NCBI RefSeq assembly: GCF_029962835.1 | Contig: NC_080582.1 | Coordinates: forward strand, 70,986,177 to 71,050,176 | Source: Magnolia sinica | Lineage: Eukaryota > Streptophyta > Magnoliopsida > Magnoliales > Magnoliaceae | Direction: 5' to 3' | DNA: 64,000 nucleotides | Part shown: in pieces, positions 2,290 to 37,098 of the stretch | How the letters are laid out: the number at the start of each line of letters is the position of its first letter | Position numbering within the stretch: the stretch's first letter is position 1 | Notes under the pieces: generated by a model | Seen by the model: the letters and a program-made list of their open reading frames with translations, nothing else | Told to the model about the DNA's origin: nothing | Databases searched by the model: none | Position numbers and translations under genes: made by a program

Positions 2290-2870
2290 GTCGTCGAAAT
2301 TTCTATATTGCCATTGGCTTGACTTGCTTCAGTCATTCAATAATGCATTGTTAGGCTGTATAGCAACTCAATAATGCAATAGCACCTACGCCGAGACGTC
2401 GTAGGGAATCTGTGGGGCACACCTCTATGGATACGTTTTCTATACACTGCATGTCCATCTGTTTTTAAAGCTCATTTGGGCATGAGCCCAAAATTGAAGC
2501 ATATTAAAAATAGTGAAGATTAAATGCTTACCATTAAATCTTACTAGGGCCCAGAAGTTTTGGATCAATATATTTGTGTTTTTTGTCAGTCCAGGTCTGT
2601 GTAACCTTATTAACAGGTTTGATACAAATAAAAATGACTGCAGACCCTAGGAAGGTTTCAATAGCTGACATCATTTTCTTCACTGTTTCCTATGGTGTTG
2701 TCACTTGAGCTTTGAATCTGCCTCACATGAGCTGAAAAAAATGATGGACAGAATAAACACATAAATCATAGTGTGCACTCAGAGCTTTAACACCAGGTAG
2801 GCGTTGCGGTAATCAACTAAACCTCGTCCAGTCTATCAGTCGTTTAGAATTGGGACGTAGATAACACGCA
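2290..2870. repeat. Copy 0 of the pre-NLR repeat block
   Basis: This stretch, beginning near ATTTCTATATTGCCATTG, matches 18418-18750 and 33690-33922. All three share the CAATAATG...AGAGACGCC words and a hairpin-family segment. In the intact locus this block lies just upstream of the NLR, so here it marks the end of an older array unit. Confidence 0.65.
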
Positions 2871-2940
2871 CCAAATCTACGCACGTGTCACCACACAATC
2901 GGACAATCGGCATCCTAAAAGCAAGAGAAAATAAAGATAT

Positions 2941-3310
2941 GTTAAACAGTGTTCGCTACAGAGATTATATATTAACTTTTGGGCTTTCAGTTCGATACAA
3001 GTGGGCCAAGGTTTATTTATACAAAACATTGATAAGCTTGAAGGGGTTATGATTTTCCAGTATGAATCCACATCCGTAATGTCAGCCATCAGATGAACGG
3101 TATCGATTGCTTAACCATGATATGTACTTGTACCGAGCAAACTGACCCCGTCGAATCTTCAAGTGGTCCTCAGTATACCAAACAAGGTTGGGATTATTTT
3201 CTTCTCTATTTCCTGTGAAGGGATAGTGATTGAGGTAAAAGGAAATGACCCAATGCACTTTACTTTTAGTCTCATTCTTCATCTGTGAGTTTTGAACAAG
3301 TGATTGAAGT
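2941..3310 (+). promoter_or_regulatory. Orphan copy of the NLR upstream region
   Basis: Over about 370 bp this is closely similar to 33923-34296, the DNA immediately upstream of the intact NLR. The similarity starts at GTTAAACAGTGTT and ends at AGTGATTGAAGT, roughly 33 bp before the position of the NLR start codon. Beyond 3311 the sequence is unrelated and no NLR coding sequence follows. I infer a leftover of a deleted NLR copy. Whether it still promotes transcription cannot be told. Confidence 0.75.
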
Positions 3311-3339
3311 GCTGGGGTTTTGATTTGCGGAATCATATA

Positions 3340-3701
3340 GTGATGGATCTAGGATAGTAATCCAAGAGCACCAAGCAAACATAAGATAACACAGATTTAA
3401 CGTGGAAAATCATATCGGGAAAAAACCACGGCACGAAGCGACAGAAATTCACTACGAAAGCATAAATTACAAAGAGAAAAGACTTATCCGATTCAAACAA
3501 GCTTGAATCTCACCCTTGCTACACCCTTTGCAACCCTAGAACCCATTCTAGAAACCCTTTTGAATACTTTAGAAAGCTTTAGAATATTTTAGAATGGCCC
3601 TAGGAACTCCTATTTATAGTTTAGGTAACCCCACTTTCACACCAACTTGGAATAATTCGGAAACCGCCTCAAATTTACGCAATCCATGTGCTATCTACGT
3701 A
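3340..3701. mobile_element. LTR fragment, class uncertain
   Basis: This contains a TATTTATAG TATA-like box near 3611. It is followed by about 70 bp (CACCAACTTGGAATAATTCGG onward) matching part of the Athila-like LTR at 29535-29610. It joins abruptly to the middle of an element X LTR at 3702. It looks like a truncated LTR that displaced the start of X copy 1. Confidence 0.5.
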
Positions 3702-4170
3702 ACCAAAGACCTCAACTTCTGAGGTTAGCCTCGGATACCGATCTCGGCCTCGGGTACCAACCTCGGCCTTGGAGGTCGGCCTCAGATATCGACCACTACC
3801 TCAAAATACAAATGCACTTACAATATATTAAGATAGAATTATCCTCCGAGATATTCGTCGAGGATCTCAGGAAGTCAACCACGACACGTCCAGAGAAAGA
3901 TCTTTTCTGTAAGACGCAATCACCAACCAAGAGGCATTGCTATCTACGTCTCTGAGACCAAATGTTATAAATAAATGCCTCCTCTACAGTAAAAGGTACA
4001 ACAAATATTCTGATTCTATTATGCCTATTGTAATCTATATCATGACTTAGGTATCAAAGGGTTCTCGGCCTTAACCGTCACCCCTTGTGTCTTCTCTTGT
4101 TCTTCAGTAAATTGCAAATACTATAGCTAGCAGGAGGTGAGGCAGGTTCAACCAGATTTTGACATCAACA
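3702..4170 (+). repeat. Element X copy 1, truncated 5' LTR
   Basis: It matches 20795-21268, the 5' LTR of copy 2, including the CTCGGCCTCGGGTACC-rich repeats and the terminal ATCAACA. The first ~110 bp of the LTR are missing. The LTR contains a TATAAATAAATGCC TATA-like box near 3967. Confidence 0.8.
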
Positions 4171-4560
4171 GTTGGCACCGTCTGTGGGAACGACATCAAA
4201 ACCATTCCCATCTTATACAGTGATTCTACAATGGTGAAAAGCAAGAAGAGGGCCCAAGCCGTGATCGCAACAGTTGCTCCCCCACCAACAGAGTAGTCTG
4301 TGGACCACAAAGACCTGTCCTCATAACTTCAGGATGATTCTACACCTGCAGGCCATGCGTAACAATCCTGAAACTAATGAGGTTGGCTTGTCTCTCTGGA
4401 ACATCAAGTTAAAGTCTTGACCGGTAATATTAACCAAATAATGCAGATCTTGAAGAGATAAAACCCACCTCCTGACCAGGGGATAGATGCACGGGCAACC
4501 ACTGAGGTCTTTGCACCACCTCAAGCATTAGTTGATTCACAGAAAACCAAGCAACATCCT

Positions 4561-5550
4561 ATGCAACTGAGCCATGCGCCCTCCCACACCTTGAGAACTG
4601 CCACACCCACCGACTTTGACTTGCGTCACACGTTGGAGAAGAAGAGGCGTGGAAAGGCTCCCCAGGTGATAACCAAGAACGAAGGCCCTTGGAAGGCAGA
4701 ACTCGATAAGCTGCGAGGTCATATCAGCGATATCCGCCAAGCCTATCGTGCCCAAATACCGACTTCCGTCGACGATACGCTGGAGGCGACCGAGCCACCA
4801 TTTACCAATGACATTATAGGAGCCCAACTCCCGCCCAATTTCTGAATGCCGCAAATCGACCCCTACTCCGAGTCTGGCGACTTGGCCGAGCATTTAAAAT
4901 AATTCAGGGCATGAATGGAGCTCAACGGTGCTTCGAGCTCGGTTATGTGTCGAGCCTTCTCCTTGACTTTGTCGAGGACTACACAAAAATGGTACAAGCA
5001 ATTAAAGTCGAAGTCCATCAGCTCCTTCACTCAACTTAGCAAGGCCTTCGTCACATAGTTCATCGGTAGGAAGATAAAAGAAAGCAATCAACTCATCTTC
5101 TCACAATCACTCTGAGGGAGGACGGGCTGCTAAAAGACTACGTCATCCATTTTAATGCTGAAGCTGTCCAGGTCAATGATTATTCTGACCAAATAGCTCT
5201 AGCCGCCATGATAGCCGGCCTTAAACGAGGAAAGTTTCTCTTTTCTATTGGTAAGAACCCTTTACTTACTCTCACTGACCTACTTAACTTAGTTAAAAAC
5301 TATTCCAATGTCGATAAGTTTTTTAGTTAACGAAAAGATGCTCGAGAAGGAAACAACTCGGTTAAGGATAGGAGGTGAAAGGAAAAAGGGGAGCTCTCTG
5401 CTGTTAACGCCAAAAGAAAGAAAGAGGATGACCAAGACCGAGACTATTGTACCAACTGACATCCGGAAAGTCACTTCCATCGGTACACTCCCTTAAATAC
5501 CAAGCCAGAGCAGGTACTTGAGGAAGCCGGGCTGAGTAAGAAAACCCGAC
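4561..5550 (+). pseudogene. Broken gag of element X copy 1
   Basis: Retrotransposon capsid-like gag, in pieces. The N-terminal part (4561-4845) contains GKAPQVITKNEGPWKAEL and ends at a stop right after QLPPNF. The next frame carries words typical of plant retrotrans_gag proteins: FRAWMELNGASSSVM, then QLSKAFVT, then LKRGKFLFSIGKNP. The C-terminal part has basic residues and HFHRYTPLNTKPEQVLEE. Stops and frameshifts break it into at least three segments. Copy 2 has a TGA at the same place after the PxF motif, so that lesion predates the duplication or is family-wide. No pol follows. Confidence 0.75.
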
Positions 5551-8500
5551 GATCAAGTTGAACCAATCAACTGAACTCGGTAAAAAGACTAGTCGGCTAA
5601 CCCCAACCTACTAGATTAAGAGCGATCTCCCCTTTTGAAAGGGAAAAAGGTGCTCATGATTAGATTATTGTATTTTCTACTATTTTATGAGTTCTACAAT
5701 AAAAGAATTTTCCCAGGTTAGGGGAAGAAAATTCTTTTAAATGATTTCTCAACTATTTGAAATACACGACCGACTACGAGGGCTTCCCATAGTGCAAGGA
5801 AAGAAAGTCTTTTCTTGTGAGTTCTATTATGAAAGAACCACCCCAAGTGTCATGCCCCAAACTCGGAAAACGGGCTCACAAAATTTTCGATTGCCAAATC
5901 CGGCGCCGACAGCCTCTATAGTGCCCCATTCTCGGATCCCGGCACTCACATGCCAGATTCCGATCTTGGGATCTTACAAGGAGAATTTTCAGTATGAATT
6001 TTTTTTTATAATGGAGCATAACTACAAGCATAACCAAGTCACAAAACAATATCACCACATATCCAATATATCAAAAACTTTAAGTACAGTGCGGAAAGGA
6101 AAAATACAAGGTGATCAAAAACTTCAAAATAATCCGACACGTGCTCTTGCCTCAGCGCTGCTACAATCCAATGACACCTGCACGCAACGGTCATGCATAA
6201 GCTTACAAAAGCTTAGAGGGTGGTGTAAGTGTGTGCGCAAGGCAAACGCCAAGTGTACAATATCAGAGTAATGCGAAAATATGCTGTAAGTCCATGAATG
6301 CTATCAGTTGTACCAAAGCTATATGATGAAAGACATGAATGCTATCGGCCATGCGATGCGAGGCCTATGTAGCTAAATGTCATATGCGAGATGCAAAGCA
6401 AGCATGCCAGTCCTCATCAAGTACACATATCAGTACAGTTCCTCTCTGGATATCACCGGGGTCTAATACACTTCACACTGACTGCCTCCTCCCTAGCTAC
6501 ATAGCCAAGCAAGTGGAAGAGACCACACTATCCGCCTGACTAGTAGTCTGCCAATACCTACCCGACTCGTCGATAGCGGACTCATTTGTGAGCTAGTCAA
6601 AGTCAGCCTAGCTTATAGCCCTCTCACTCGGGCGGATAAGGCCACACCTCTTTTCAACCGACCATGACACAGTCGGAGACGCTGCCTACTGGTATTCGGC
6701 ACTCGGGCGTTCGTGTATCCACTCGGTCTAGACGTTGGAGCATCTTCTGGTACCAAAAAGGTTCTGAAATTTTTACCCAAGGACATCCTAAGTGCCCACA
6801 ATGCTAGAGCCAATATTTTCGGTATCCGATACGACCATCCACGATGTGCCTGTGGAGGTCAAGGCCCTGATGTAGCTAGGGCGTGCAGTGATCACGACAC
6901 ACAATGCGAAATGCATGAGTCACACCATCAGTCATGCAGCAATCCTGCGCGTACCGCGCGATCATGTGGGGCACTCCGTCTTATAAGGAGTCCTGTAAAT
7001 GTCTCAGCCCAACGGCTTATGCTATGATCAAACATTCCTCATATCAAGCATACATATGATGCGTATGGGCATGAATCATAGAGTTATACTAAGCATGTTA
7101 TAAAGTGGTGAATTATCAACAAGTATGGGCTTACCAATGGGCCCTAAGGAGAGTTACAATGCGGACATTTAACCAATATTGTACTTATAATGTGGATGTC
7201 AAACCATCATTGCTCCCAAGGCATAGCTCGTCATAAAGGTCAACACATAAACCATGGTGGAATCACATTCAATGGGCCTTATGTACATCCCATTGGGCCT
7301 TGACCCACGGGCCTCCAATACATCAAACAGGCCTCATAACTTGGGCCTCATATATATCAAGGTGGGCCTCAACAACGGGCTACGAATACATCAAGATGGG
7401 CCTAATCACATGGGCCTCAAATATATACCAAGGTGGGCTTCAATAGACAGCCAAAAATAAATCAAGATGGGCCTCATAACATGAGCCTTATATTCATATC
7501 AAGGTGGGCCTCAACAATGGCCTCATACACATCGAGGTGGGCCTCAACCAACGAGCCATAAATATGACAAGTGGGCCACCTCGCATGGGCCATATGTATA
7601 TCAAATGGGCCACACCAATTGGGCCCCATGCATATCAAATGGACCATACCCAAAGATGAGTGGAAACTGCTATGGCTCTTAAGAAGTTTGAATGGTGGAG
7701 GTCACTGCCACTATTTTAAATAGTGGGGTCCACTTGAACTTTAGATCTGACTCATTCTTTAACTCATGCCATAAATGAGCTTTCAAAGTGGTTGGACGAT
7801 TTGGATGCAACACATGCATCATGGTGGGGTCCACACACATGGCCCACTAATTAAATGGACGGCTTGGATGTAACACAGACATTAAGGGTGGGGCCTACTG
7901 GCCGTCTAGCAGATGCCTGGACAATGTGAATAAAACACATACATCATTGTGGGTCCAACATGGGGCCCACCTTAATGTTGTATGCCATCCAACCTGTTGA
8001 TAAGGTCATGCTGACCTGGATGGAAGGAAAAACAAATTTCATATTGACCCAAAACTTCTATGATTCCCAAAAGGGTTCAATGGCAGTTGTTCAATCACCG
8101 CTATTTCTTATGATGTGGGCCACCTGAGCTCTAGATAGGGCTGATTTTTGGTGGGGGCCCACTTCAGGAAGGGGCCTACCAAATGAACAGTGTGGATAGT
8201 AAACACATATCATGGTGGGGCCCACGGTTGGGACCGTGGGTCCCTGCCTACCCGCTGAATACCGCAGGCGCTGCCTGCGTGCCTCTGGCAGCAGCAACGT
8301 CTGCTGCAGATGTTTTGTTTTGTTTTTTTTTTGAAATCTGTTTTTCTGGGATTTTTCGTACGTGGGGCCCATATCAGAAGAATCCACCGCATCCACTACT
8401 TCCCATAGCTCAAGACAAGCCAAACAAGTCCAATATTGAATATATTTCGGCGTGTAGCAAAATTAAAGTGAATTTAAACGGTGAGAATCACTTTTTTGAA

Positions 8501-8669
8501 AGGTATGGCCCGCCCGATGAGCGGATTAGCTTCATTTTTTGGCTCAACGCCTAAAATCTAATGGGGAATAGAATGGATGGCGTGGATTGGACCCATATAT
8601 CAAGGTGGGGCCTGCATGAGCAGTCCATCAAAAGGCCTAAAAACCCACTGTCTGTTCACACTTCATTTA

Positions 8670-9217
8670 GGGCCTGTTTGTTTTTTCAAAGAGATGGTAA
8701 ATACACGGTGAACGGTAATTCCCCCTATTTCACGTGTTTGAAAATTCATAGGAATTCGTGTCTTTGAAATTGGTTCAAAAGAGGTAACTTTAATTTTTGA
8801 ACCACATGATAATGCATGTGATATATCCATTCCGTCCATCCGTTTTACTACAATATTTTGAAGCATGAGACAAAAAATGAAGTAGATCCAATACTCAAGT
8901 GGCCCACGCCAAAAGAAACACTGGCCCTACAAAGTTTTTAACGGTCAGTATTCAATTTCCTTTTTCGTATGACGTGGTCCACTTGAGTTTTGGATATGCC
9001 TCATTTTTTTTACTCATGCTATAAATTCAACTGGAATAATGGATGAATGGTGTGGATAAGCAAAATGCATCACAGTGGGACCCACGGATATTTCGCAATA
9101 TTCTTGGTTTTTGTGTAAAAAAGTAAGAGTCAAATCAGGTATGTTATAAATGCACAGGGAAATAATAATTATTTTTTTACATGGCATTTACCATTTCACC
9201 GGAAATCAAACAGGCCC
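8670..9217. mobile_element. Tourist-like (PIF/Harbinger) MITE with TTA target duplication
   Basis: It begins GGGCCTGTTTG and ends CAAACAGGCCC, flanked on both sides by TTA (8667-8669 and 9218-9220). The arms continue to pair inward (GATGGTAAATAC against GGCATTTACCATTTC). The centre holds a copy of the dispersed hairpin family. It is non-coding and nested inside element A. Confidence 0.8.
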
Positions 9218-9438
9218 TTAGTCCACGTCCAGCGTCCAGGGACGCTAGACGGATGGCTTGAATATAAAAATCAAGGTGGGTCCCACATGGACATGGCCCA
9301 CCTGATTTGAATCAATTTGATACTTGTGGTTTCCCATCACCATAAGATAGGGCTCACATGGTTTGGACGGCCATGGGGTCCATTTGATGGACGGTCTAGA
9401 TATCACATACACTCATCATGTGGCCCACAAAATAAAGG

Positions 9439-9439
9439 A

Positions 9440-9477
<38 letters not shown>
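9439..9477. repeat. GA dinucleotide microsatellite
   Basis: An uninterrupted run of about 18 GA units inside element A. Confidence 0.9.
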
Positions 9478-9478
<1 letters not shown>

Positions 9479-10873
9479 GCGATGATGGAGGGACCCCAGC
9501 ACTATGGGCCCTCCCTGCCACGATTTACAACATACATCAAGTGGGTCCCATTACATACGGGCCCACCGATCAAAATCGACGGTGGAGATCCTTTCTCCAC
9601 CAAAATGAAGGGTCTAGATGACCTTATTTATGCAAGGAAAAATAACATCATGATGGGGTCCATGGAGAATGGCCCCATCATGGAATGATCATGAGGATCA
9701 AGGTGGGCCATCGGCCACACCTAGGGTCCAAAGTGAGATCCATACCATCAATCAGTAGGTTTCACTTGGCCCATCATCAAAGCAATAAATATAGGCCTAA
9801 TAAGCACCCACCGTTCGATCTTCTTGGTCCGTTGGAAAGCCGATCTCCTTGTGTCTCACTTTGATGGTGGAAGATGAGAAATGAATAGATAGGATGAAGG
9901 TTTTTGGGATGGGAAGGTGGGCCACCAAAATCACTTTTCTCTCTTGGAATGCATGGACATGCACTTCTCTTGCTAACTTAGAATTTATGTTGAGAAATGA
10001 GGGAGAGAGAGAGGGTTGTAAGGAGAGGTGATGTGTGATGGAGTGATGGAGTAATGGGAAGTGAGTGATGGGGTGATGGGCATGTACTTGACATGTATGG
10101 GTGTGTAAGAGAGAGAGAGGGAGAGAGTTGACTTTGGGGTTGCTTTTGGGGATGGGACATGTACTTGACATGTGAGGTAATTGATTGGATTGATTTGATA
10201 TGTTGTAGAGATTCTCTTGGGATTGCAAACGCGCAGCGTTTTCTCGAACTGAACGCGGGTCCACATCTCCCTGCTAGGATATTGGATCGGTATGCAAGAC
10301 GCGGCGTTGGAACCGCGGCGACGGTGCGGTCGCAATGGTACAAGTCTCAGATTAAGCCGACTCAAATATATGCGATTCGACTTACAGTCACGCGCAAACA
10401 TTGATTATATATCGCAGGTTGCCGAAATTCAACGAAAAGGATCACAGGAGTCGACGGAATAGTACGGACTAAGATATGGGTCTTACACCAAGTTAGGGGA
10501 GGAGAATTTCTTTCAAATTTCGACTATCCAAGCTACGCGATCGACGACTAGGATTTCCCTCAATTGAAGGGAAGAAAAGTTTATCCTATTAGTTCTACAT
10601 CGCGTGACCTACTCTTTCTACTTCAATTGGTCGACAATTAGGACTTCCCTCAGTTGAATGGAAAAGAAAAAGTCTCTACTATTAATTCTACCATATGCGA
10701 TCTACCACTGAACAATCGACTTATCGATCTTATGATTGTTCAGCCCACTAGTTCTACTCCGTCAGACCTCTCAACCTCCCGACTTACCCCTTCGATGCAA
10801 GGCATCACATAGTGTTAGTCCATACTAACTTACTTCCCGAGCTCCTAAAGAATGCTCGGAAGTAGGGGGCTAC

Positions 10874-11258
10874 TGTTATGGGTAAGAATGGATTGACCAT
10901 ATGTACAAACTCGAAAACTATGAATTGCTTGAGGGCCGAAAAATCACCCCGACCTCGGGTACTAACCTCGGCCTCAGATATCAACGATCTCTTCCATAAG
11001 CCGTAATCACTATCCAAGAAGCATTGTCATATACGTCTCTCAGACTAGAGACTATAAATAAAGGCCTCCTTTATAGTAAAAGGTACAACAAATATTCCGA
11101 TTCTATTACGCCTATTATAGGTCAATATCATGACTTAGGCATTAGAGGGTTCCCAGTCTTAACCGACGCCCTTTATGTCTTCTCTTGTTCTTTAGTAAAT
11201 TACAAATACTATGACTAGCAGGAGGTGAGGCAATATCGACTAGATTTCAACATCAACA
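10874..11258 (+). repeat. Element X copy 1, 3' LTR
   Basis: TGTTATGGG...ATCAACA, 385 bp, the same length as the 3' LTR of copy 2 (31988-32372). It lacks the CTCGGCCTCGG-rich block present in both 5' LTRs, so the shortening is shared by the two copies. Confidence 0.85.
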
Positions 11259-12296
11259 AGATATATTTAAATGATCAAATAGACGTTATAATCATTCAAG
11301 CAATCTTATTTTGGAACTGCTAATTTCATGATGGTGTTTTGTGCATTTTAGTTGTATTAATTTTAATTAATATATGCTATATTTGCAACTTCTTAGTTGT
11401 GTAAAAAGGTTTATATGCTTGCTTAAGCATCATATAGAGTAGCAATTTGGGTTAGGATGACCCAACCATGATGTATGTATTATATCTACACCATCCATCT
11501 ATTTCATGAGATCTTTTTATGACATTAGCCCAAAATTGAGGCAGAACCAAAGCTCAAGTGGACCACACCACAGAAACAAATGGGGACAATGACACCCACC
11601 ATTGAAATCTACTTAGGGCCCACTATGATGCTTATTTGCCATCCAACCTGTTGATAAGGTCATGAAAACCTAGGTGAAGGCAAAACACAATATCAACTTA
11701 GTTCAAAACTTCTATGGCTCTCACGAGGTCTTCAATGGAAGACTCTCATTTCCCTTCAACTTTGAAACTACTTCAACTTTTTTGGGGCACTTACCTAAAA
11801 TAATTTTACATAAATGTATGGCCAACATGGATATAACACATACATTATGGTGGGCAGAAAGAACTTGGTGATGTTAACACACCACCAAGGTTGGTGGTGT
11901 GTGACACACCATGCAACCGGCTTCCTTCTATTTCCCTCCTCATTTCGCACGTGCAATGCTAGTACTGTTGAGGCGGATTTCTTGCCAAAGCCTTTTGTGG
12001 GAAGTTCCTGCGCAAGGATGCTATGTGGGGCCCACTTCAATGTATGTGAGAAATCCATTCCATCCATTTGTTTTGATAGCTCATTCTAGGATGTGCCACC
12101 AAAAATGAGCTGAATACAAAATTCAAGTGGGTCACACGAGAGGGAAAATTGGGGGTAGAAATTCCTACTGTTGAAACCTTCCTGGGCTCCACTTTGATGT
12201 TTATATGTCAACCAAACTATTTATAAGGTCATTCCCAATGGGATAAAGTGAAAAAACCAGAAAGATAGCCTGATATAAAAAATTTAAGGCCATAGA
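11259..12296. repeat. Flank block, copy 1 (left part)
   Basis: This matches 32373-33425 nearly end to end, starting AGATATATTTAAATGATCAAATAG. It includes two hairpin-family segments (11455-11870 and 12020-12290) and the GGTTGGTGGTGTGTGACACACC stretch. No gene. It is split from its continuation (18152 onward) by element B. Confidence 0.8.
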
Positions 12297-14799
12297 TGTA
12301 AGGCCTGTATCCTAGCTCGTACCGTTCTATAGGCTTCCTCAGTCCTATCAGTCAAATTTCGGTGACTCGCGATCTGTTGTCGGCATTTACGCGCGATCCT
12401 GAGTCGTGTCCCGTATATCCGAGTCGGCGCGACATAAGACTTGTACCTTAGCGACCGCGCCGTCGCAGCGGTTCCGATGCCGTGTCTCGCGCGCCGAGGC
12501 AATACCCATGCCAGGAGATGTGGGCCCATGTTCAGTTCGAGAAAAAATACCGCGCATTTGCAAATCCAAGAGAGAATTCAAATCATGTCCCATCAATCCC
12601 ATCAATGTCAAGTACATGTTAAGTACAATACATCGATCAACCCATCACCCAACACATCACTCACCCCAGCACGACCCATACATCTCTTACACAACAACCC
12701 CAAAAAGTCAACATTTCCATCCCATCTCCTCTCTCTCTCTCTCTCTTTCTCTCCCATCCATCACTCCATCCCATCTTCTCTCTCTCTTATTTCTCCCTTC
12801 TCTTCCAAGTAACCAAAGAAGAACCCAACGTCCAAGCTTCTCATGCTCCATGAGAGAGCTAGGTGTGGCCCACTTTCTTACCTCTCATCTCCACCATCTA
12901 AAGTCCATCTCGACCATTTAAATTCTTCCTTGGAGCTCTAGCATGCATTGGCGGAAGAAGGAAGAGGGGATCCAAAGGTGGGTGATTCTATGTTTTTCTA
13001 CCGTTGATTTTGTCATTTGAGGGCCCACATATGGTGGGACCCATCTTGATGTATGCCTTGTATCCAGGGGCCCGTAGTGGCAGGGTCCCTCCACCATCCG
13101 ATCTCTCTCCCTTTATCTCTCTCTTTACTTTCTATTATGGTATTGAGGATAGTGAGGAGTGGCCCACCTGATGTGTGTGTGTGGCCCACCTGATCTAGTT
13201 GGTGGAGCCCACATTGCTGTCCATGGCGGGACAGACCCTGATGGAGGAAATCACAAATAACATCTTGATCCAAACAGTGGTGGCCCATCCTCATGGCACT
13301 ACATGATGTATGTGCCTTATTTACACCGTCCAGCCACTGACCCCACCCACGTGGAACCTACCCACGTGGAACCCACCTTGATGTACATGTGACACCCACA
13401 TCGTCCATCCATTTTGCTGCCTAGGTGGTGGAAACCACCGTGATATTTTTTTACGAACTCTGTGCATCTAGGGAGCCCAAAGTAATTTTTATATTTTATA
13501 CATTACACTGTCCACATATACATGGATCTAACCTTGATGTATGAATCAAATCCACACCGTCCATCCTATTTCCAAAGTCATTCTAGGCGTTGAGCCGAAA
13601 AATGAAGCCAATCCAACTTTCTGGCGGGCCATAGCATAGAAAACAGTATTTTCTACCATTAAAATGCACTCTGATATTTCTGTATCCCAAAATATATCGA
13701 ATATTGGGCTTGTTTGGCTTGTCTTGAGCCATAGGAGCCATTAGGTGGGGTGGATCCTCACGATGCGAGCCCCACCTAGGAAAAATCCCAAAAAAATGAT
13801 AAACAAAAAGAAACAAGCAGCTAACGCTGCAGCAGATTCCTGCTGCGTGACGGGTGAGAGAGGTCAGGGCCATGGGCCCCACTACAGGCCCCACCGTGAT
13901 GTGTGTCAAAAATCTCCACCGTGCATTTAATGGACCCCACCTGGATATTGTGATACTCTAAAAATCAGCCGTAGGTGGAGCTCAGGTGGCCCACGTCACA
14001 GGAAATAGTGGACTGAACGACTGCCATTGGAACCTTGTTTGGGTTCACAGAAGTTTTGGGTCATTATGAAATTTGTTTTTCCTCTTCATACGGGTCTCTA
14101 TGACCGTATCAATGGCTTGGATGGCAGATACACGTTATGTGGGCCCCACGTGGGACCCACTTGCATGAAGTGGATTGGCTGGTCTACAGTGCCCCAGCTT
14201 TGTTAGCTGGTGTATTGACATCAGCATCTGGGCCTGATCACCTAGACCATCCATTTATGTGGACCCCACCTCCCATCAACGGTGTATTGACGCCAGCAAG
14301 TTCTGTGGACCCCGCACGGATGTATGTATCTACACCGTCCATTCTGACAGTGCACGTGGAGTCCACGTGATGTATGGGCCTTATTCTCAGATGGCGAGGC
14401 CCACCTTCTGTGCATTTATTAGATACCCACGCCGTTCATCTATTCCATCCAGCCGTTCATCTGGACGTTTTGCTAGATGGGGCTCCCTTTGATTTATGTA
14501 CTGTATTGAGAAAAAATAAAATAAGACAGATCTAGTACCGTGGACCACACTATAGAAATAGTGGGATTGAACATCTACCATTGAAACCCATGGATTCCAG
14601 AAGCTTTGGATCAATGGGGAATTTGTTTTCCCTCTTAATCCAGGTCTTCATGACCTTATGATTAGATTGGTTGGAAAATAAACTTTATGGTGGGCCCTGT
14701 GATTTCTTTAACAGTGTGAATTTATTATCTCCACTGCTATTTGTGGTATGGTCCAAATAATCCTTCCATATGATTCTTTTTTTTAGGGATGCATGTGGC

Positions 14800-15260
14800 C
14801 CACCTCGATATATGCATGAGGCCAGTTGTTGAGACCCACCTTGATGTGTATAAGGCCTGTTGTTGAGGGCCACCTTGATATATATGAGGCCCATGTTATG
14901 AGGCCCATTGTGATGTATACAACACCCATGGGTTATAGCCCATTGCAATGTATATAAGTCCCAATTGGTGTGGGCTATTCGATATATATATATATATATG
15001 AGGCATTAGGCCCATCTTGATGTATTTGTGGCCTGTCCATTGAGGCCCACCTATTATATATATTTGAAGCCCATGTGTAGGGCCCACCTATTGTGTATAT
15101 TAAGCCCATGGGTTGTGGCCCATAGTGATGTATATCAGGCCCATGTGATGTATCCCATAGTGATGTATATTAGGCCCAAGTATGTGGCCCACCTGAGAAG
15201 TATATTTGAGGCCCACTTGCGATGTGTTCGAGGCCCATGAATGAGGCCCAATGTGATGTA
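14800..15260. repeat. Array of GGCCCAT...GATGTATAT words in element B
   Basis: Irregular 30-40 bp units combine GAGGCCCA or AAGCCCATG with TGATGTATAT. The same wording appears inverted in element A (7250-7650) and again at 16040-16320. Non-coding. Confidence 0.7.
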
Positions 15261-15559
15261 TGTGTGGCTGTTACATTGTGTATAAATCCCTTATGTAGGC
15301 CACTCCTTGGGAGTAATGTTGGTTAGATGTCCACATTGATGTGCAATGATGGTTAGATGTCCTCATTTTGACCTTCCCGTAAGCTTTGTTAAGCCTATTT
15401 GCACCATTTTCTAAGTGGGTTAACCTAAATAAGTGGGCCCCATTCGTCATAGATGGATGGCTCCGTGCTATCAGATTTGATATAATCATGGTCGTGGGCC
15501 GATCTTTATATTATGGTTAATCAGTTGTCTATTTATGGACCCTGCCTTTTTATATGCTG

Positions 15560-16035
15560 ATTGTCGGTGCCGATTATCGATGCTGATTATCGGTGCCGAT
15601 TGTCAATTTCGATTGACGTAACCGATTTGCTGATTCTGATTATCGACCGATTCCGATTGTCATGACCGATTGCCGATTCCGATTGACGTGACCGATTTAC
15701 CGATTCTGATTTGTCAAGGCCGATTGTATAAGCCGATTCCGATTGTCGAGGCCGAGTATCGAAGCCGATTTCGATTTTTCAAAGCCGATTGTATTGAGGC
15801 CGATTCTGATTTGTCGAGGCCGATTGTATAGGCCGATTCTGATTTGTCGAGGCCGATTATATACGCCGATTCCGATTGTAGAGGCCGATTCTGATTTGTC
15901 AAGGCCGATTGTATAGGCTGATCCCGATTGTCAAGGCCGAGTATCAAGGCCGATTCCGAGTGTCGATTCTGATTGTTGCGGCTGATTTCGATTGTCAAGG
16001 CCGATTTCGATTGCCAAGGCCGATGGTCGAGACCT
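15560..16035. repeat. GCCGATT minisatellite-like array
   Basis: Dozens of GATT words appear in units such as GAGGCCGATTGTATAGG and CCGATTCTGATTTGTC, with irregular spacing of about 15-45 bp. I saw no equivalent in element A. The open frame across it on the minus strand (SALTIGLDNR-type peptide repeats) is a consequence of the array. Confidence 0.8.
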
Positions 16036-18151
16036 ATATGATGTATATGCGACTTGTAGTTGAGACCCATTGTGATGTATTCGTGGCCTATGGGTAAGGC
16101 CCATTGTGATATGTGTTAAGCCCATGATGCATGGCCCATTTAATGTATTCAAGGCCCAGATTCGTGGCCCATTGATGCATATGAGACCCATGTGTAGGGC
16201 CCACATGTTATGTATTTGAGGCCCATGAGTAGGGTCCACCTGTTGTGTATATGTGGCCCTTGAGTAAGGCCCATTGTGTTGTATATTAAGCGTTTGTGTG
16301 AGGCTGTGGGCCCATTATATGTTTGGCTCTGTGTGGGCCATTCCCGAGGGGCAATGTTGGTTAAATGTGCACATTGTCGAGGCCGATTGTTAATGCCAGT
16401 TATTAATACCGATTATTAGTATGTGATAGCATAGCATCATGATACATGCCCATACGCATCATCTGTATGTTTGTTATGATGTGTGGTTGACCATTGCATA
16501 TGTCATTGGGCAGATTGTTATGAGACTCCCTGATAGGCGGAGGTTATCTCACTTGAGCGCACGGTATGCGCAGGATTGATGCATAAATGGATTGTATGAC
16601 TCATGTATCTTACATTGTGAGTTATGATTACCATACGCCCTAGCGACATCAGGGCGGTAGCCTCCACAAGCATATCGTGGGTGGCCAGATGAGACACCAA
16701 AAATGTTTGGTTCGAGCATTGGGCTGCCATAGATGGCCCTGGGTGAAAATCTCTAAAACCCTCTTGGTACCAGAGGACGCCCCAACGTCGAGACCGAGTG
16801 GATACATGAGCCCTCGAGTGCCGAATACCAGTAGGCCGCGTCTCCCACTGTGTCGTGGTCGGTTGGGAGGGGGTGTGACCTTACCCGCCCGAGAGTAGGG
16901 GGCATAGCTAGGCTGAGTTTGACCAGCTCGTAAATGAGTTTGCTATCGACGTGCCGGATAGGTATTGGTAGACTATTGGCCAGGCGGATAGTGAGGTTTA
17001 TTACGCTCACTTGGACTGTGCTACTGGGAGAGGGGTAGTGCCATTTGGAGTGTACTAAACCCCAATGATGATCCCAGAGCAGAACCATACTGATATGTGG
17101 ACTTATTAAGCAGGAGTTACATACTCATTCATTTATTCACTATCCACTCGGCCTAGTGGTGCGCAACTATTTGTTATGTGTACCTTCACATGGCCAGGAT
17201 TTCAGTTGGGGCGTACGACTAACCTGAGATCAGGAGTTTACCACATCGAGTCTGACTATCCAAATTTAGGTATGAGACTGGTTTGGATAGAAGTCCCTTG
17301 TGATGGACCCCATAGCCTGCGATACTACGTACTATCATCCCGACTTCATACTCCAGCGTGGTCATTCCATACGCACTGCATATTGCATTACATCCGCGAC
17401 ATATGACATTTTGCGTTACTGTATTTCTGCATTTATATGGTTTAGATACGACTGACGTATTTGTAAACACATAAGGAATTGTACATTACATTGCATTCTC
17501 GACATTTGATATTTGACTCTTTACGACTTCTCATTTGTATAGCTGATCTGTATTGCATACTCTGATATTGTATGACTCATGGACTTGTCAGTATTTTCGA
17601 TTAATCTGTTATCGTATGATTTATAATGTTGTCAATATTTTTGCTTACTTTGATAATTCATGATCTTGTCAGTATTTCTGCTTATTCCGATATTGTACAA
17701 TTTATAGATTACCAGTATTTCCGGTATTGTATGATTATGGCATTGTATTGAATACTTGACACTTACCTTATGCACACATTTACACCACCCTTATGCACGA
17801 TAGATGCGTGTAAGTGATGTTAGGTTGCAGCAGTGTTGAGCTTGGAGCGTGCAGTGGTCTTCTGGAGCTTGATTTTTCAATTTATGTATTTTCCTTTCAG
17901 CATTGTATTCAAATGTTCATATTAATGGATATGTGATGATGATGTTGCATTTGTGATTTGGGTATACTTGTGGTTATACTTATTAAGAGTTAAATGTACA
18001 TTGGAAAAAAAATATCCTCCTTGTAGGATCCCATGATCGGAATCTGGTGTATGGACGCTAGGAGCCGAGAATGGGGTACTCGGAGGCTGTCGATACCGGA
18101 TTTGGAGATCAAAATTTCTGTGAATCCAATTTCCGGGTTTGGGGCGCGACA

Positions 18152-20385: not shown

Positions 20386-20683
20386 GGTTGTAAGATAAAT
20401 TTCTCATTGTTATCATTCTTTTATAGTATTTCTATATGACGAATCGATGATAAATTAAGATGAAACGTCTTTACTATCGAGTTCAACAATGAGAGTAAAC
20501 GTACCTACTCCATATAAAAGTGTAAGTGTGCCATAAAAATAGGCTCTTGATTGGGCCTGACATACACTTATATTAGAAGATTAATTCAAGTCTCTAATTC
20601 TAAGATGATACCAAAAAAATTATTATTTGACTATCAATTGATATATATTCTCACGGTTTAAAGTAGAAAATATCCAATAGTTC
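20386..20683. other. Unassigned AT-rich spacer
   Basis: About 300 bp without a gene or recognised repeat, between the small solo LTR and element X copy 2. Confidence 0.5.
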
Positions 20684-31987: not shown

Positions 31988-32372
31988 TGTTATGGGTAAA
32001 AATGGACTGACCAGATGTAAAATCTCGAAGGCTATAGATTGCTTGAGGGCCGAAAAATCACCCCGACCTTGGGTACTAACCTCGACCTCGGATATCGACG
32101 ATCTCTTCCGTAAGACACAATCACCATTCAAGAGGCATTGCCATATACATCTCTCAGACTAAATGCTATATATAAAGACATCCTCTATAGTAAAAGATAT
32201 GACAAATATTTCGATTCTATTACACCTATTGTAAGTCCATATCATGACTTAAGCATTGGAGGGTTCCTAGTATTAACCGACTCCCCCTGTGTCTTCTCTT
32301 GTTATTCAGTAAATTACAGGTACTTTGGCTAGCAGGTGGTGAGGCAGTATCGGATGGATTTCAGCATCAACA
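31988..32372 (+). repeat. Element X copy 2, 3' LTR
   Basis: TGTTATGGG...ATCAACA, 385 bp, aligned with 10874-11258. A TATATATAAAGACA TATA-like stretch lies near 32167. Confidence 0.85.
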
Positions 32373-33922
32373 AGATCTATTTCAAGGATCAAATAGGGAT
32401 CAAATAGATGTTATAACAATCTTATTTTGGAACTGTAACTTCATGATGGTATTGTGTGCATTTTAGCCGTATTAATTTTAATCAATATATGCTATACTTT
32501 CAACTTAGTAGTTCTGTATGAAGGTTCATATGCTTGCTTAGGTATCATATAGAGTAGCAATGTGGGTTAGGTTGACCCAACCATGGTGTATGTATTATAT
32601 CTGCACCATTCATCTATTTCATGAGATCTTTATACGACATTGGCCCAAAATTGAGGCAGAATCAAAGCTCAAGTGGACCACACCATAGAAAGAAATGGGG
32701 ACAATGACACCCACTGTTGAAACCTACTTAGGGCCCACTGTGATGCTGATTTGCCATCCAACCCGTTGATAAGGTCATGAAAACATAGGTGAAGGCAAAA
32801 CACAAATTTCAACTTAGTTCAAAACTTTTATGGCTCCCACGAGGTCTTCAATGGAAGACGCTCAGCCCCCTTCAGCTTTGAATCTGCCTCAAAATTTTGT
32901 GGCGCTTACCTAAAATAAATTTACAAAAATGTATGGGAAACTTGAATATAAGACATACGTTAGGATGGGCAGAACTTGGTGACATCAACACACTATCGAA
33001 GTTGGTGGTGTGTGACACACCATGCAACCGGCTTCCTCCTATTTCCCTCCGCTCCTCGTTTCACATACTCCTATTTCCCTCTGCTCCTCGTTTCACATGC
33101 AATGCCAGTACTGCGGAGGCGGATTTCCAATAAAAGTACTGGAGGCGGATTTCCAATAAAAGCTGTTCACAAGAAGTTCCGGCAGAAGGATGCTACGTGA
33201 GAAATCCATTCCGTCTCCGTTTATTTTGCTCGCTCATTCTAAGGATGTGCCACCAAAAATAAGTTGGGTAGAAAACTTAACTGGGTCACACGATAGGGGA
33301 ATTTGGGAAAAGAGATTCTTACCGTTCAAACATTCCTGGGCTCCACCTTGATGTTTATATGCCATCTACACGGTTTATAATTTCATTCCCAATGGATGAA
33401 GTGAAAAAACCATACAAAAAATTTATGGCCATAGGATTGCTTCAACAGTGCTAGTTGAATTTCCACCATTTCCTCTTGTGTGGCCCAATTTAATTTTTTA
33501 TCCATCTCATTTTTGGTGGAACGTACTAAAATGAGCTCGCAAGACAGTTGGATGGAATGGATTTCTCACATGCATTGAATTGGGCCCACATAACATCCTT
33601 GCGACAGGAACTTCGTGAAATCCGCGTCCCAGTACTGCAGATAACGAATGTGTGGACGTCGTTATCCACGTCCACACGTCGAATTCTAGCCAAATTTCTG
33701 TATTGCCGTTGACTTAACTTGCTTCAGTCAGTCGATCAATATTGCCTTGTTCGGCGGTAAAACAACTGAATAATGCAATTGCACCCCGCAGAGACGCCAC
33801 AGGACCCTGTTGTACGCACCTTTATGTATAAATTTTATCTACATTTTAAGTGGTCTCATTAAAGTATATTCAATGATTAAATGTACCGCACACAACAGAA
33901 AATAATGGGGATTACACCTACC
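32373..33922. repeat. Flank block, copy 2 (uninterrupted)
   Basis: This matches 11259-12296 joined to 18152-18750, and its end also matches 2290-2600. It includes two hairpin-family segments (32565-32990, 33225-33560), a local tandem of CTCCTATTTCCCTC (33040-33080), and a GGAGGCGGATTTCCAATAAAAG doublet (33114-33162). No gene. It leads directly into the NLR upstream region. Confidence 0.8.
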
Positions 33923-34329
33923 GTTAAACAGTGTTTGCTCCAGAGATTGTATATTATTAACGTTTGGGTTTTTACTTCCATATAAGTGGGCCAAGGTTTG
34001 TTGATCCAAATCGTTGATAAGCTTGAAGGGGCTATGAGTTTTCGATATGAATCCACATCCGTAATGTCAGCCATCAGATGAACGTTTTCGATTGCTTAAC
34101 CATGATATGTACTTGTACAGAGCACACTGGCCCAGTTGAATCTTCAAGTGGTCCTCAGTATACGAAACAAGGTTGGGATTATTTTCTTCTCTATTTCCTG
34201 TGAAGGGTTAGTGATTGAGGTAAAAGGATATGACCCAATGCACTTTACTTTTTAGTCTCATTCTGCATCTGTGAGTTTTGAGCAAGTGATTGCAGTTTTT
34301 CGTGAGAAGAAGAAAGAGAGACGAGGAAG
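33923..34329 (+). promoter_or_regulatory. NLR upstream region and 5' leader
   Basis: About 400 bp between the repeat block and the NLR start codon. No convincing TATA box is visible. The last 30 bases are purine-rich (GAAGAAGAAAGAGAG). The first 374 bp have a paralogue at 2941-3310 without a gene. The proximity of a repeat block suggests that the promoter is short or lies partly in repeat-derived DNA. Confidence 0.6.
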
Positions 34330-37098
34330 ATGGTTGTTGAGTCTGCTGTTTCCTTGGTTTTAAGAAAACTCAGTGATGTACTGGTTCAAGAGGCAGTTTC
34401 CCTCTATCAAGTGCGTGATCAGGTGGAGTGGGTCGAGAGAGAATTGAGGCGGATGCGGTGCTTCTTGAAAGATGCTGACGCAAAGCAAAGCGGTGATGAA
34501 AGAGTGAAGAATTGGGTGGCAGATGTGAGAGATGTTGCTTATGATGCAGAAGACATCGTCGACACCTTCATCCTCAGAATAGAACAAAAAAGGAGAAGTG
34601 GGTTCGTTGGTTCCCTCAAAAGTTGCATGATCATCAATGTTGAATTATTGGCTCGACATGAGATCAGTAATGGGATCGAACGGATAAAGAATAAAATCCA
34701 GGAGATCTCTGCGAGCACAGAAAGGTATGGCATTAAAGATGTTAGCAGAGTCGAAGAAGGAAGCAGCTCCAGGGGTGAAAGTCTGCGCGAGCAAAGGCAA
34801 ACTTCTCCTCTCTTTGGAGAGACAGATGTCGTCGGTTTTGAAGAAGACATAAAGGCATTGGTGGCACGGTTGATCCAGGGTGATTCACGACGGCGTGTGG
34901 TTTCTGTGGTCGGAATGGGTGGTCTGGGCAAGACCACTCTTGCCATTAAAGTTTATAATAACGATGCTGTTAAGAAACATTTTGATTGCTGTGTTTGGAT
35001 TTTTGTATCTCAAGAATATGTCGTGAAAGATCTTTTGCGAAGACTTATAAAAGATTTCATGACTCTTTCTATAGAACAACTTGAGATGGTGGAGAAGATG
35101 AATACTGTTCAGTTGAGAGAGATGCTTTCCAATCATTTGAAGGAGAAGAGATATCTTCTTGTGTTGGACGATATATGGAAGACCGAAGCTTGGAGTTCTT
35201 TAAAAGCTGCTTTTCCAGATAAGAATAAGGGAAGTCGAGTCCTACTCACCACCCGCAACAGAGAGGTAGCTTCATATGCAGATGCACGGAGCTCTCCCCT
35301 CGAGCTGGAGCTTTTAGGAGATGAAGACGCATGGAAATTGTTCTGCAAAAAAGCATTCTTTGAACAGGGTATCCATTACCAGCAGAATTTAGAGAAGATA
35401 GGAAAAGAGATAGTAAAAAAATGCGGTGGTCTGCCTCTTGCTATTGTCGTGATAGGGGGCTTACTATCAACGAAGGCAATGAAATCAAATGAGTGGGAGA
35501 AAGTGCTAAGGAGAATTAGCTCGCAATTGGTTGGTGATGAATCTCCAATCAGAAGAATATTGGATTTGAGCTATGAAGATCTACCTTACCGACTGAAGCC
35601 ATTCTTTCTGTACTTGGGTGTTTTTCCAGAAGACCATGAGATCCGTGCTAAGAAATTGATTCACCTGTGGACTGCAGAAGGATTTGTAGAGGCAACAGGG
35701 GAAGAGACGGTGGAGGAAGCTGCAGAAGTTTGCCTGGAGGAGCTGATCCAAAGAAGCCTGATTCAAGTGTCAAAAAGTAGTTCCATTGGTGGAATTAAAA
35801 GCTGCCGCATCCATGATCTCTTACGTGAACTCTCAATTTCAAAAGCCAAGGAAGACAAATTCCTAGTCGTTCATCAAGAACAAACAAATCCTCACTCTCC
35901 ATCAAAAGCACGCCGTCTTGCTATTCATCCGGCACCTAGTAAGTACACTTGTTTAAATCGCACCAACGCACACCTTCGTTCACTGTTATGGATCGATTTA
36001 ACAAAGGGAGAAGTTGGAAAAAAGCAAGAGCAGTTTCTTTTCAGAGGATTCAGTTTGCTTAGGGTGTTAGATTTATCTTATATGAAAATGAGAAAGTTTC
36101 CAAAAGAAATAGGTACACTGATCCACTTGAGATACCTTGGCTTCTGGTTAGCTGGCGTGGACATCTGTGACTGTTGCTTAAATGGGTGCAATTCGGTCCT
36201 ACTAAGCTTCCCATCATCCATGAGCAATCTCCACAATTTAGAATCGCTTTATGTAAAATCAAGTTATGAGACAATTTACATACCCAGTTTTATTTGGAAG
36301 ATGCAACAATTAAGGCATGTGAATGTGTCCTCTGGAATCATAATAAGTAAAGGTGTGGGGTCTAAAATAGTGGGGCGTCCATCACTCGGACTTGATTCTT
36401 TAGTTAATCTCCAGACTCTAAAATATGTGAAGGCTGGCGATTGGATAGGGGATTGTTTGGAGAAGCTAACTAATCTAAAGAAACTGAGAATATGGGGGAT
36501 CTACCAGAGTAGGCATGCAGAGGGATTGTCCAACTCTCTTCCCAGATTGGACCGCCTCCAGTCTTTGTGGTTGCAGTGGCACAGTACTATTCCAGTTTTT
36601 ATGCCTATTTCACATAACCTGCATTTGAAGAAGATGTTTTTGAGTGGAAAGTTAGAGAAGCTACCTGAGTCGAATGAATTCTCACCTAACCTCACCAAGC
36701 TTACCTTGATATCCTCCGAGTTAACGGAAGACCCGATGGCGACATTGGAGAAACTACCCAACCTTCGGATTCTCTCATTTTGCAGTCGTTCATATATGGG
36801 AAAGGAAATGGTCTGCTCTGCACAAGGGTTTCCTCTACTTGAATCCTTACATGTTGTAGAGTTACCTGAATTAGAAGAGTGGATTGTGGAGGAAGGAGCA
36901 ATGCCGATGCTTTTAAAATTGCTGATTTCGAGAAACTCTAAATTAAAGATGTATCCAGAAGGACTGCAACACGTGACTACCCTCAAGAAATTGGAGGTGG
37001 TGCGCATGCCAACTGAATTCAAGGCCAGAATGCTGGAAAATGGTGGAAAGGATTGGCATAAAATTCAACATATACCGTCAATCGAAATAAAATGGTGA
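34330..37098 (+). CDS. CC-NBS-LRR disease resistance protein, RPP13/RPP8-like
   Basis: Single-exon intracellular immune receptor, 922 residues, near the usual length of its family. N-terminal coiled-coil (Rx-N) domain, about 1-150, with an EDIVD form of the EDVID motif at 74-78. The NB-ARC ATPase follows: P-loop GMGGLGKTT (195-203), RNBS-A FDCCVWIFVS, kinase 2 YLLVLDDIW (275-283), RNBS-B GSRVLLTTRN (301-310), GLPL CGGLPLA (365-371), RNBS-D FLYLGVFPED, and the MHD position as IHD (494-496), a common variant. Leucine-rich repeats fill about 545-920, ending IQHIPSIEIKW. Start codon context is AAGATGG. All catalytic motifs are intact, so it is probably functional. Such proteins detect pathogen effectors in the cytoplasm. 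Its 3' end is tandemly duplicated downstream. The closest named gene cannot be decided without a search. Confidence 0.95.
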   Translation: MVVESAVSLVLRKLSDVLVQEAVSLYQVRDQVEWVERELRRMRCFLKDADAKQSGDERVKNWVADVRDVAYDAEDIVDTFILRIEQKRRSGFVGSLKSCMIINVELLARHEISNGIERIKNKIQEISASTERYGIKDVSRVEEGSSSRGESLREQRQTSPLFGETDVVGFEEDIKALVARLIQGDSRRRVVSVVGMGGLGKTTLAIKVYNNDAVKKHFDCCVWIFVSQEYVVKDLLRRLIKDFMTLSIEQLEMVEKMNTVQLREMLSNHLKEKRYLLVLDDIWKTEAWSSLKAAFPDKNKGSRVLLTTRNREVASYADARSSPLELELLGDEDAWKLFCKKAFFEQGIHYQQNLEKIGKEIVKKCGGLPLAIVVIGGLLSTKAMKSNEWEKVLRRISSQLVGDESPIRRILDLSYEDLPYRLKPFFLYLGVFPEDHEIRAKKLIHLWTAEGFVEATGEETVEEAAEVCLEELIQRSLIQVSKSSSIGGIKSCRIHDLLRELSISKAKEDKFLVVHQEQTNPHSPSKARRLAIHPAPSKYTCLNRTNAHLRSLLWIDLTKGEVGKKQEQFLFRGFSLLRVLDLSYMKMRKFPKEIGTLIHLRYLGFWLAGVDICDCCLNGCNSVLLSFPSSMSNLHNLESLYVKSSYETIYIPSFIWKMQQLRHVNVSSGIIISKGVGSKIVGRPSLGLDSLVNLQTLKYVKAGDWIGDCLEKLTNLKKLRIWGIYQSRHAEGLSNSLPRLDRLQSLWLQWHSTIPVFMPISHNLHLKKMFLSGKLEKLPESNEFSPNLTKLTLISSELTEDPMATLEKLPNLRILSFCSRSYMGKEMVCSAQGFPLLESLHVVELPELEEWIVEEGAMPMLLKLLISRNSKLKMYPEGLQHVTTLKKLEVVRMPTEFKARMLENGGKDWHKIQHIPSIEIKW

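What the first reader, a model, noticed from the sequence alone, without database searches (positions are those of the whole stretch)
2290..37098. Decayed tandem NLR array with one surviving receptor
The order element X, flank block, NLR upstream region and NLR is present completely only at 20684-37098. A second unit (3702-18750) has X and flank but no upstream region or gene. A third trace (2290-3310) has the end of the flank and the upstream region but no gene. With nested insertions removed, the two X-to-flank units are similar in size (roughly 4.6-4.9 kb). This suggests repeated unequal duplication of a unit that included the transposon X, followed by loss of receptors. The unit structure is seen directly; the order of events is inference.
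Basis: partly seen in the sequence, partly recalled or inferred. Interest (0 to 1): 0.75.

Follow-up and report, generated by a model that had tools for sequence, protein, structure and literature searches.

The report
Magnolia immune-receptor array with receptor-less units
In a magnolia chromosome, a block of DNA in front of a disease-resistance gene was copied several times together with an old jumping gene, and some copies have no receptor; this is the ordinary birth-and-death of plant immune genes, but the jumping gene shows the order of events unusually clearly.

Summary
The window is Magnolia sinica C10:70,986,177-71,050,176; the receptor is an RPP8-like CNL with a 922-aa frame. "Element X" is the 5' LTR of a ~2.9-kb gag-only LTR retrotransposon; the first part of the "flank block" is its interior and 3' LTR. 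Only sequence past 32,372 is host flank.

"One surviving receptor" fails outside the window: it is one of 13 near-full-length copies (>=80%) in 0.85 Mb; of five in line on this strand within 159 kb, three have intact frames. Still, 3 of 6 upstream blocks between N2 and this gene lack a receptor, with no tblastn relic. At A|B an inserted LTR element is truncated, favouring deletion.

Copies exchange sequence: dS to the neighbour is 0.027 over codons 1-790, 0.130 beyond. A well-resolved member of a known kind.

The parts
2291..2500 (+).
   Evidence: 75% to F3 of unit B over 175 sites
2507..2940 (+). spacer between F3 and UP with MITE-like repeat; also present before N3, missing in unit B
   Evidence: 77% over 449 bp to C10:70921242-70921680
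2941..3310 (+). UP block: orphan copy of the NLR upstream region, ends 33 bp short of where the ATG would be
   Evidence: K2P 0.092 to unit B
3311..3701. filler between the orphan UP and unit A; pieces of it recur nearby; no NLR relic. The genome-wide search for it did not complete
3702..4172 (+). unit A: 5' LTR of element X, first ~115 bp missing
4173..5847 (+). unit A: internal region of element X (part 1)
5848..10487 (+). nested insertion 1 in A: TG...CA ends, 5-bp TSD CCAAG; solo-LTR-like
10488..10873 (+). unit A: internal region of element X (part 2)
10874..11259 (+). unit A: 3' LTR of element X, lacking the same ~200 bp as the 3' LTR of B
11260..12296 (+). unit A: host flank F2
12297..18151 (-). 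nested insertion 2 in A: related to insertion 1, opposite orientation, TG...CA ends, TSD ATAGA; solo-LTR-like
18152..18757 (+). unit A: F3; breaks off in the F3-UP spacer
18758..20027 (+). high-copy LTR retrotransposon at the A|B junction: nearly whole left LTR (~698 of 717 bp of a dispersed copy), shortened interior, right LTR truncated after ~416 bp
20028..20385 (.). second repeat remnant (its last ~86 bp are dispersed genome-wide)
20386..20683 (+). sp2: array-specific host sequence left of the element X insertion; 4 places found, all in this array, plus a 38-bp remnant at C10:70984579
20684..21268 (+). unit B: 5' LTR of element X (TG...CA; TSD AGTTC before it, AGATC after the 3' LTR)
21269..21669 (+). 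unit B: primer-binding-like site (recalled motif) and internal region of element X (part 1)
31988..32372 (+). unit B: 3' LTR of element X, ~200 bp shorter than the 5' LTR
32373..33433 (+). unit B: host flank F2 with two nested dispersed (MITE-like) repeats
33434..33922 (+). unit B: F3
33923..34329 (+). unit B: UP, immediate upstream region of the NLR
34330..37098 (+). intact RPP8-like CNL (Rx_N, NB-ARC, winged helix, LRR), 922 aa
37099..38969 (+). DN: array-shared sequence downstream of the NLR
38970..39660 (+). tandemly duplicated 3' (LRR) fragment of the NLR
39661..41668 (+). second copy of DN

Best explanation
This is a birth-and-death array of RPP8-like CNL receptors in Magnolia sinica. 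The ancestral unit was sp2-F2-F3-UP-NLR-DN. That filled unit was then copied by unequal recombination at least twice (units A, B and C10:70,941,462). Two other units kept the empty site. Some units lost their receptor: in A most likely by a deletion whose left edge lies inside a newly inserted LTR element, and in the trace by a break 33 bp upstream of the ATG position. Surviving genes keep exchanging sequence, so the window's receptor shares a recent copy with its neighbour N4 over about 2.4 kb. Shown: unit structure, single origin of the insertion in A and B, absence of tblastn-detectable receptor relics, mosaic ancestry. Inferred: unequal crossing over as the copying step, and deletion rather than never having had a gene.
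For: Empty sites at C10:70,905,240 and 70,952,490 against filled sites with 5-bp TSD AGTTC/AGATC. sp2 at 4 places, all in this array (40 scored of 171 candidates, the other 36 match only a dispersed repeat end). ~200-bp deletion only in the A and B 3' LTRs, 2 of 13 LTRs compared. LTR tree groups A3+B3 (97/96) and the three 5' LTRs (95/95); AU rejects A5+A3 (p 0.00125) and B5+B3 (p 0.0147). K2P order: filled vs units without X, host flank 0.21-0.28; LTR vs LTR in one element 0.195-0.21; A vs B 0.14-0.18. Array neighbours. No receptor relic in the gene-less units (tblastn E<=1). Right LTR truncated at the A|B junction. Exchange: dS 0.027 vs 0.130, longest-run permutation 0 of 2000 for the pair Nw-N4.
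Against: The 5' flank of element A is gone, so A rests on its 3' flank, the shared deletion and the tree; the 70,941 copy has lost its 3' flank, so it rests on its 5' flank and the tree. The five array LTRs form one clade with only 77/90 support, and the AU groups were named after a first tree had been seen. sp2 divergence of filled vs empty units (0.16-0.19) is no larger than LTR-LTR divergence, so the order of array birth and insertion is not tight. The 70,984 unit is far (0.25) from both clear empty units and its insertion site is deleted, so its state is unknown. In unit B the segment that would separate deletion from partial duplication is itself missing. Two weak ~105-bp NLR-like DNA matches downstream of N3 and N4 could be old relics. 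One genome only; assembly error was not tested, although 10-18% divergence between units makes collapse unlikely.
Confidence: 0.83

Rival explanations
1. The receptor-less units never had a receptor: only the block upstream of the gene (element X to F3, with or without UP) was duplicated, so the array is inflated with spacer copies rather than decayed.
For: No NLR, DN or D3 relic found in the three gene-less units, although gene fragments persist elsewhere in the array (38971-39660; N3 frame of 604 aa). The direct F3|repeat|sp2 order at 18757-20386 is also what a partial tandem duplication would leave.
Against: The junction carries an LTR element with a nearly whole left LTR and a truncated right LTR. 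A partial duplication would put the rest of that element in unit B's F3, where it is absent, although B has a deletion just there. The trace keeps UP to within 33 bp of the ATG position.
Confidence: 0.27
2. X copies in A and B are independent insertions of one transposon family.
For: The element is a dispersed family, and X-interior adjacency alone is expected for any two copies.
Against: Shared host flank beyond the 3' LTR, shared ~200-bp 3' LTR deletion, LTRs grouped by position with AU p 0.00125 and 0.0147, same 5' flank in B and C10:70,941,462.
Confidence: 0.03
3. The high identity of the window's NLR to its neighbour N4 reflects recent duplication of a whole unit, not sequence exchange.
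For: 97% over the whole gene.
Against: Upstream K2P 0.145, dS 0.130 in codons 791-922 against 0.027 before, and N4's far downstream flank goes with N2 (93.5% over 3121 bp; informative sites).
Confidence: 0.08

Closest known systems
RPP8 / RPP8-like CNL clusters (Arabidopsis RPP8 family, PMC6771003: title and start of abstract seen in a search listing only)
   Same: Same receptor class by domain order and named relatives; the listing says that gene duplication and intergenic exchange are studied there.
   Different: Magnoliid; units carry a retrotransposon insertion with empty and filled states, and 3 of 6 upstream blocks examined lack a gene.
Coffee SH3-CNL cluster (PMC3113787, passages read)
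   Same: Birth-and-death with duplication, deletion and gene conversion between paralogues of a perennial.
   Different: [quoted passage not shown] here repeats lie at the receptor-less junctions and a retrotransposon was copied with the unit.
Common bean Co-2 CNL cluster (PMC6102362, passages read)
   Same: CNL cluster with segmental duplications, many solo LTRs and receptor losses.
   Different: Subtelomeric and khipu satellite-embedded; no unit with an insertion used to order duplications was seen in the passages read.
Gag-only LTR retrotransposons (TR-GAG; name recalled, the term occurs in papers of the search listing, none of them opened)
   Same: Short element with LTRs, gag domain in one copy, no pol frame found in what was scanned.
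   Different: Family not compared with described TR-GAG families.

Membership tests
RPP8-like CNL receptor | Rx_N coiled coil, NB-ARC, winged helix and LRR in one intact frame | tested here: met
   Rx_N 7e-29, NB-ARC 3e-69, WH_DRP 7e-23, LRR_14 4e-30; 922-aa frame
RPP8-like CNL receptor | closest named relatives are RPP8-like | tested here: met
   the two best hits are named RPP8-like protein 4, Magnolia sinica (95 and 86% identity); several lower hits bear other names (At1g50180-like, RPP13-like)
RPP8-like CNL receptor | confers recognition of a pathogen | not testable with these tools
   needs expression and infection or cell-death assays
NLR birth-and-death tandem array | several paralogues in line with shared flanks | tested here: met
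NLR birth-and-death tandem array | pseudogenes or lost copies | tested here: met
   N4 stop at codon 34 (an 888-aa frame follows), N3 frame 604 aa; 3 of 6 upstream units without a gene
NLR birth-and-death tandem array | sequence exchange between copies | tested here: met
LTR retrotransposon, gag-only (TR-GAG-like) | long direct repeats with TG...CA ends and 5-bp target duplication | tested here: met
   (TSD AGTTC/AGATC, 4 of 5 bases alike); LTR matches at both ends of the interior in 5 of 6 dispersed copies fetched; L033 has the 3' side only, L038's 3' LTR is partial
LTR retrotransposon, gag-only (TR-GAG-like) | gag domain | tested here: met
   PF03732 E 1.9e-10 in one dispersed copy (L033); none in the L034 frame scanned; the frames of A and B are decayed (best window piece E 0.097)
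LTR retrotransposon, gag-only (TR-GAG-like) | no pol genes | tested here: inconclusive
   no pol hit in the frames scanned, interior only about 2 kb; six-frame scan of all copies not done
One insertion copied with its unit | LTRs cluster by position across copies and host flanks match | tested here: met
   controls d35 and d36 pair their own LTRs, d34 and d37 cluster by position and look like copies of one insertion themselves

The most novel reading that the evidence does not exclude
Receptor-less units are not inert debris: the orphan promoter block at 2941-3310 keeps exchanging sequence with the promoter of the live receptor. It is the closest of the three other UP copies compared to unit B (K2P 0.092, against 0.145-0.147) although the F3 sequence just left of it is far from B (0.298, 175 sites). 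The array would then store promoter templates for gene conversion, separate from receptor genes.
Probability: 0.18. Interest if true: 0.55.

Novelty: new member of a known kind. Interest (0 to 1): 0.36.

Why it matters
Gene conversion scrambles trees built from receptor genes, so the order of events in NLR clusters is hard to read from the genes alone (general knowledge, and shown here). In this array an LTR element with empty and filled sites in sister units, and with LTRs that cluster by position, gives a marker outside the receptor genes for which unit came from which. It shows that receptors and their flanks have different histories within one array, and it offers three receptor-less junctions in a magnoliid where the loss step can be tested directly.

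Tried and rejected
Rejected: X as a separate transposon next to a unique flank. The 'flank' F1 is dispersed and is the interior of the same LTR element. Rejected: independent insertions of X in A and B. Rejected: 'one surviving receptor'.

Considered and dropped: recombination between two LTR elements as the cause of the A|B junction. I first read 18758-20385 as one element with mismatched target duplications. One search showed that its right LTR stops at 20027 and that 20028-20385 is something else, so a target-duplication test does not apply there. An earlier count said 20 or more contigs and about 14 copies; the recounts are 19 contigs and 13 copies. Absolute dating was not attempted, because no substitution rate for this lineage came from any call.

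Dropped rows: L033 (no 5' LTR match) and L038 (partial 3' LTR) were left out of the LTR tree, so 4 of 6 fetched dispersed copies entered it. The rows named U3dn are wrong: a stretch spanning two fetched pieces fell back to other letters of the window. They were ignored and the region was redone. The recombination test used Nw, N4, N2 and N3; N1 and the LRR fragment were in the alignment but not in the test. Two ~105-bp weak NLR-like matches (C10:70936961 and 70970784) were not followed. The paper search found 0 papers with 4 of 5 terms.
Full report
Where it is. The window is G000:C10:70,986,177-71,050,176 of a 1.84-Gb genome. The contig length 88,541,654 is that given for Magnolia sinica proteins, and the assembly size matches the M. 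sinica genome paper (PMC10999834, start of abstract and passages). The receptor at 34330-37098 is a 922-aa CNL with Rx_N, NB-ARC, winged helix and LRR. Its two best relatives are named RPP8-like.

Unit lengths without nested insertions are 4561 bp (A) and 4498 bp (B). The two insertions in A have TG...CA ends and 5-bp duplications (CCAAG, ATAGA), resemble each other in opposite orientation and look like solo LTRs (inference).

What X is. X begins TGTTA and ends CAACA, is followed by a primer-binding-like site (motif recalled), and a shorter copy of it lies at 31988-32372. LTR matches stand at both ends of the interior in 5 of 6 fetched dispersed copies; L033 has the 3' side only and L038's 3' LTR is partial. 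One copy (L033) carries a gag domain (PF03732, E 1.9e-10); the L034 frame scanned does not. X plus about 2 kb of the flank block is therefore one gag-only LTR retrotransposon of about 2.95 kb in unit B. The true host flanks are sp2 (20386-20683) and everything past 32372.

One insertion, copied. Of the 40 places scored (8895 candidates), only B itself and A cover the downstream host flank 32374-33434 nearly whole; two places in the same array match in part, and the rest are repeat pieces. sp2 is found at four places, all in this array (40 scored of 171 candidates), plus a 38-bp remnant at C10:70,984,579. Two of the four, C10:70,905,240 and 70,952,490, show the uninterrupted target site; B and C10:70,941,462 are filled at the same base, and B shows target duplication AGTTC/AGATC. 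At 70,984,579 the site itself is deleted, so its state is unknown. Both 3' LTRs (A and B) lack about 200 bp; the 11 other LTRs have 171 to 201 of the 201 columns. In the LTR tree A3+B3 group (97/96) and A5+B5+U941_5 group (95/95). Forcing A5+A3 or B5+B3 is rejected (AU p 0.00125 and 0.0147); these groups were named after the first tree had been seen, though they are the natural rival hypothesis. Of the four dispersed control copies in the tree, two pair their own LTRs as independent insertions should; the other two cluster by position and look like copies of one insertion themselves. The clade of all five array LTRs has only 77/90 support. The 70,941 copy has lost its 3' flank and most of its 3' LTR, so it rests on its 5' flank and 5' LTR.

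Order of events. K2P distances: host flank F2, filled vs units without X, 0.21-0.28; LTR vs LTR of one element 0.195 (A) and 0.210 (B); A vs B 0.14-0.18 over LTRs, interior and host flanks; 70,905 vs 70,952 (both empty) 0.13, but 0.25 from either to the 70,984 unit; sp2 filled-filled 0.088, empty-empty 0.092, filled-empty 0.16-0.19. The simplest order is: array first, insertion into one unit, copying of the filled unit at least twice, then the nested insertions. The sp2 values are no larger than the LTR-LTR values, so the first step is not tightly placed.

Not one survivor. (40 scored of 306 candidates) finds 12 other near-full-length copies at 80% identity or more on C10 70.66-71.51 Mb (both strands) and one on C17 at 88%. 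On the same strand within 159 kb stand N1 (70,864,725; 912 aa), N2 (70,898,246; 911 aa), N3 (70,922,056; frame ends at 604), N4 (70,963,198; stop at codon 34, with an 888-aa open frame) and the window gene. Three of these five are intact in frame.

Receptor-less units. Between N2 and the window gene I count six upstream blocks: 70,905 -> N3; 70,941 -> none; 70,952 -> N4; 70,984 to window 3310 -> none; A -> none; B -> window gene. So 3 of 6 lack a gene. tblastn at E <= 1 finds no receptor relic in any of the three. Two weak ~105-bp NLR-like DNA matches lie outside these three, downstream of N3 and N4. At A|B, F3 stops at 18757 and a high-copy LTR element begins (40 scored of 9691 candidates). 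Its left LTR is nearly whole, its right LTR stops at 20027, another repeat remnant follows, then sp2 of unit B. A truncated right LTR is expected if a deletion started inside the element and removed UP, NLR and DN of unit A. A partial duplication of the block without the gene would need the rest of the element to have been lost from unit B as well. That is possible, because B lacks the segment in question. I put about 0.27 on that rival. In the 70,941 unit the 3' LTR of X is also broken off by a repeat after about 23 bp. In the trace, UP ends 33 bp before the ATG position and 391 bp of filler follow, pieces of which recur nearby; a genome-wide search for it did not complete.

Exchange between receptors. 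The window gene (Nw) and N4 are 97% identical, but unevenly. dS is 0.027 over codons 1-790 and 0.130 over codons 791-922; the upstream K2P is 0.145. Beyond about 37.7 kb N4's flank goes with N2 (93.5% over 3121 bp). Informative sites among Nw, N4, N2 and N3 switch accordingly: in 34330-36700 the pairing Nw+N4 has 43 sites against 3 and 1; in 36700-37099 it has 5 against 4 and 8; in 37099-37600, 11 against 1 and 0; beyond 37600, 3 against 2 while N4+N2 has 11. Upstream of the gene the counts are 2, 11 and 7, but N2 is hardly alignable there. The longest-run permutation gave 0 of 2000 for Nw-N4; 5 of 6 pairs reached 0 or 1 of 2000, and N2-N3 did not (824 of 2000). Synonymous sites follow the pattern, so selection on protein alone does not explain it. 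The LRR end differs mainly by replacement changes (Nd 42, Sd 10; dN 0.148, dS 0.130). The gene's own 3' end is also tandemly duplicated (36402-38973 ~ 38970-41668).

Against what is known. Tandem duplication is given as the main drive of NLR expansion in seven magnoliid genomes (PMC8724549, passages). The coffee SH3-CNL cluster evolves by duplication, deletion and gene conversion, with duplication edges reported as unrelated to mobile elements (PMC3113787, passages). The bean Co-2 cluster shows segmental duplications, losses and many solo LTRs (PMC6102362, passages). TE abundance was not associated with NLR abundance in cacao (PMC12405883, passages). The main text of the M. sinica genome paper holds none of the terms 'NLR', 'NBS' and 'resistance gene'. 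My paper searches did not list this locus, but I opened only five papers and the library is partial. The finding is a well-resolved member of a known kind.

Noticed in passing
   Followed up: partly
C10:70963198-70965966 (L019): 97%-identical neighbour receptor with a stop at codon 34 in the aligned frame; a public protein model of 881 aa (P0002, 95% identity to the window protein) may be this gene read from a later start, which is inferred from length only.
   Followed up: partly
C17:67334343-67337479: A single 88% copy of the receptor with its UP block on another chromosome, a dispersed duplication.
   Followed up: no
52709-53284: Frame with a Plant mobile domain (PF10536, E 6.8e-19), not far from a 97.8% direct repeat pair 55971-57823 / 59310-61161.
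   Followed up: no
43917-47083: Repeat also found inverted at C10:70944111-70951592, where it breaks off the 3' LTR of element X in another gene-less unit.
   Followed up: partly
C10:70936961-70937062 and 70970784-70970887: Two ~105-bp stretches at 71-73% to the NB-ARC coding region downstream of N3 and N4, possible old receptor relics.
   Followed up: no
C10:71465579-71465854: UP-like block on the minus strand about 12 kb from the nearest receptor start, perhaps another orphan upstream region.
   Followed up: no
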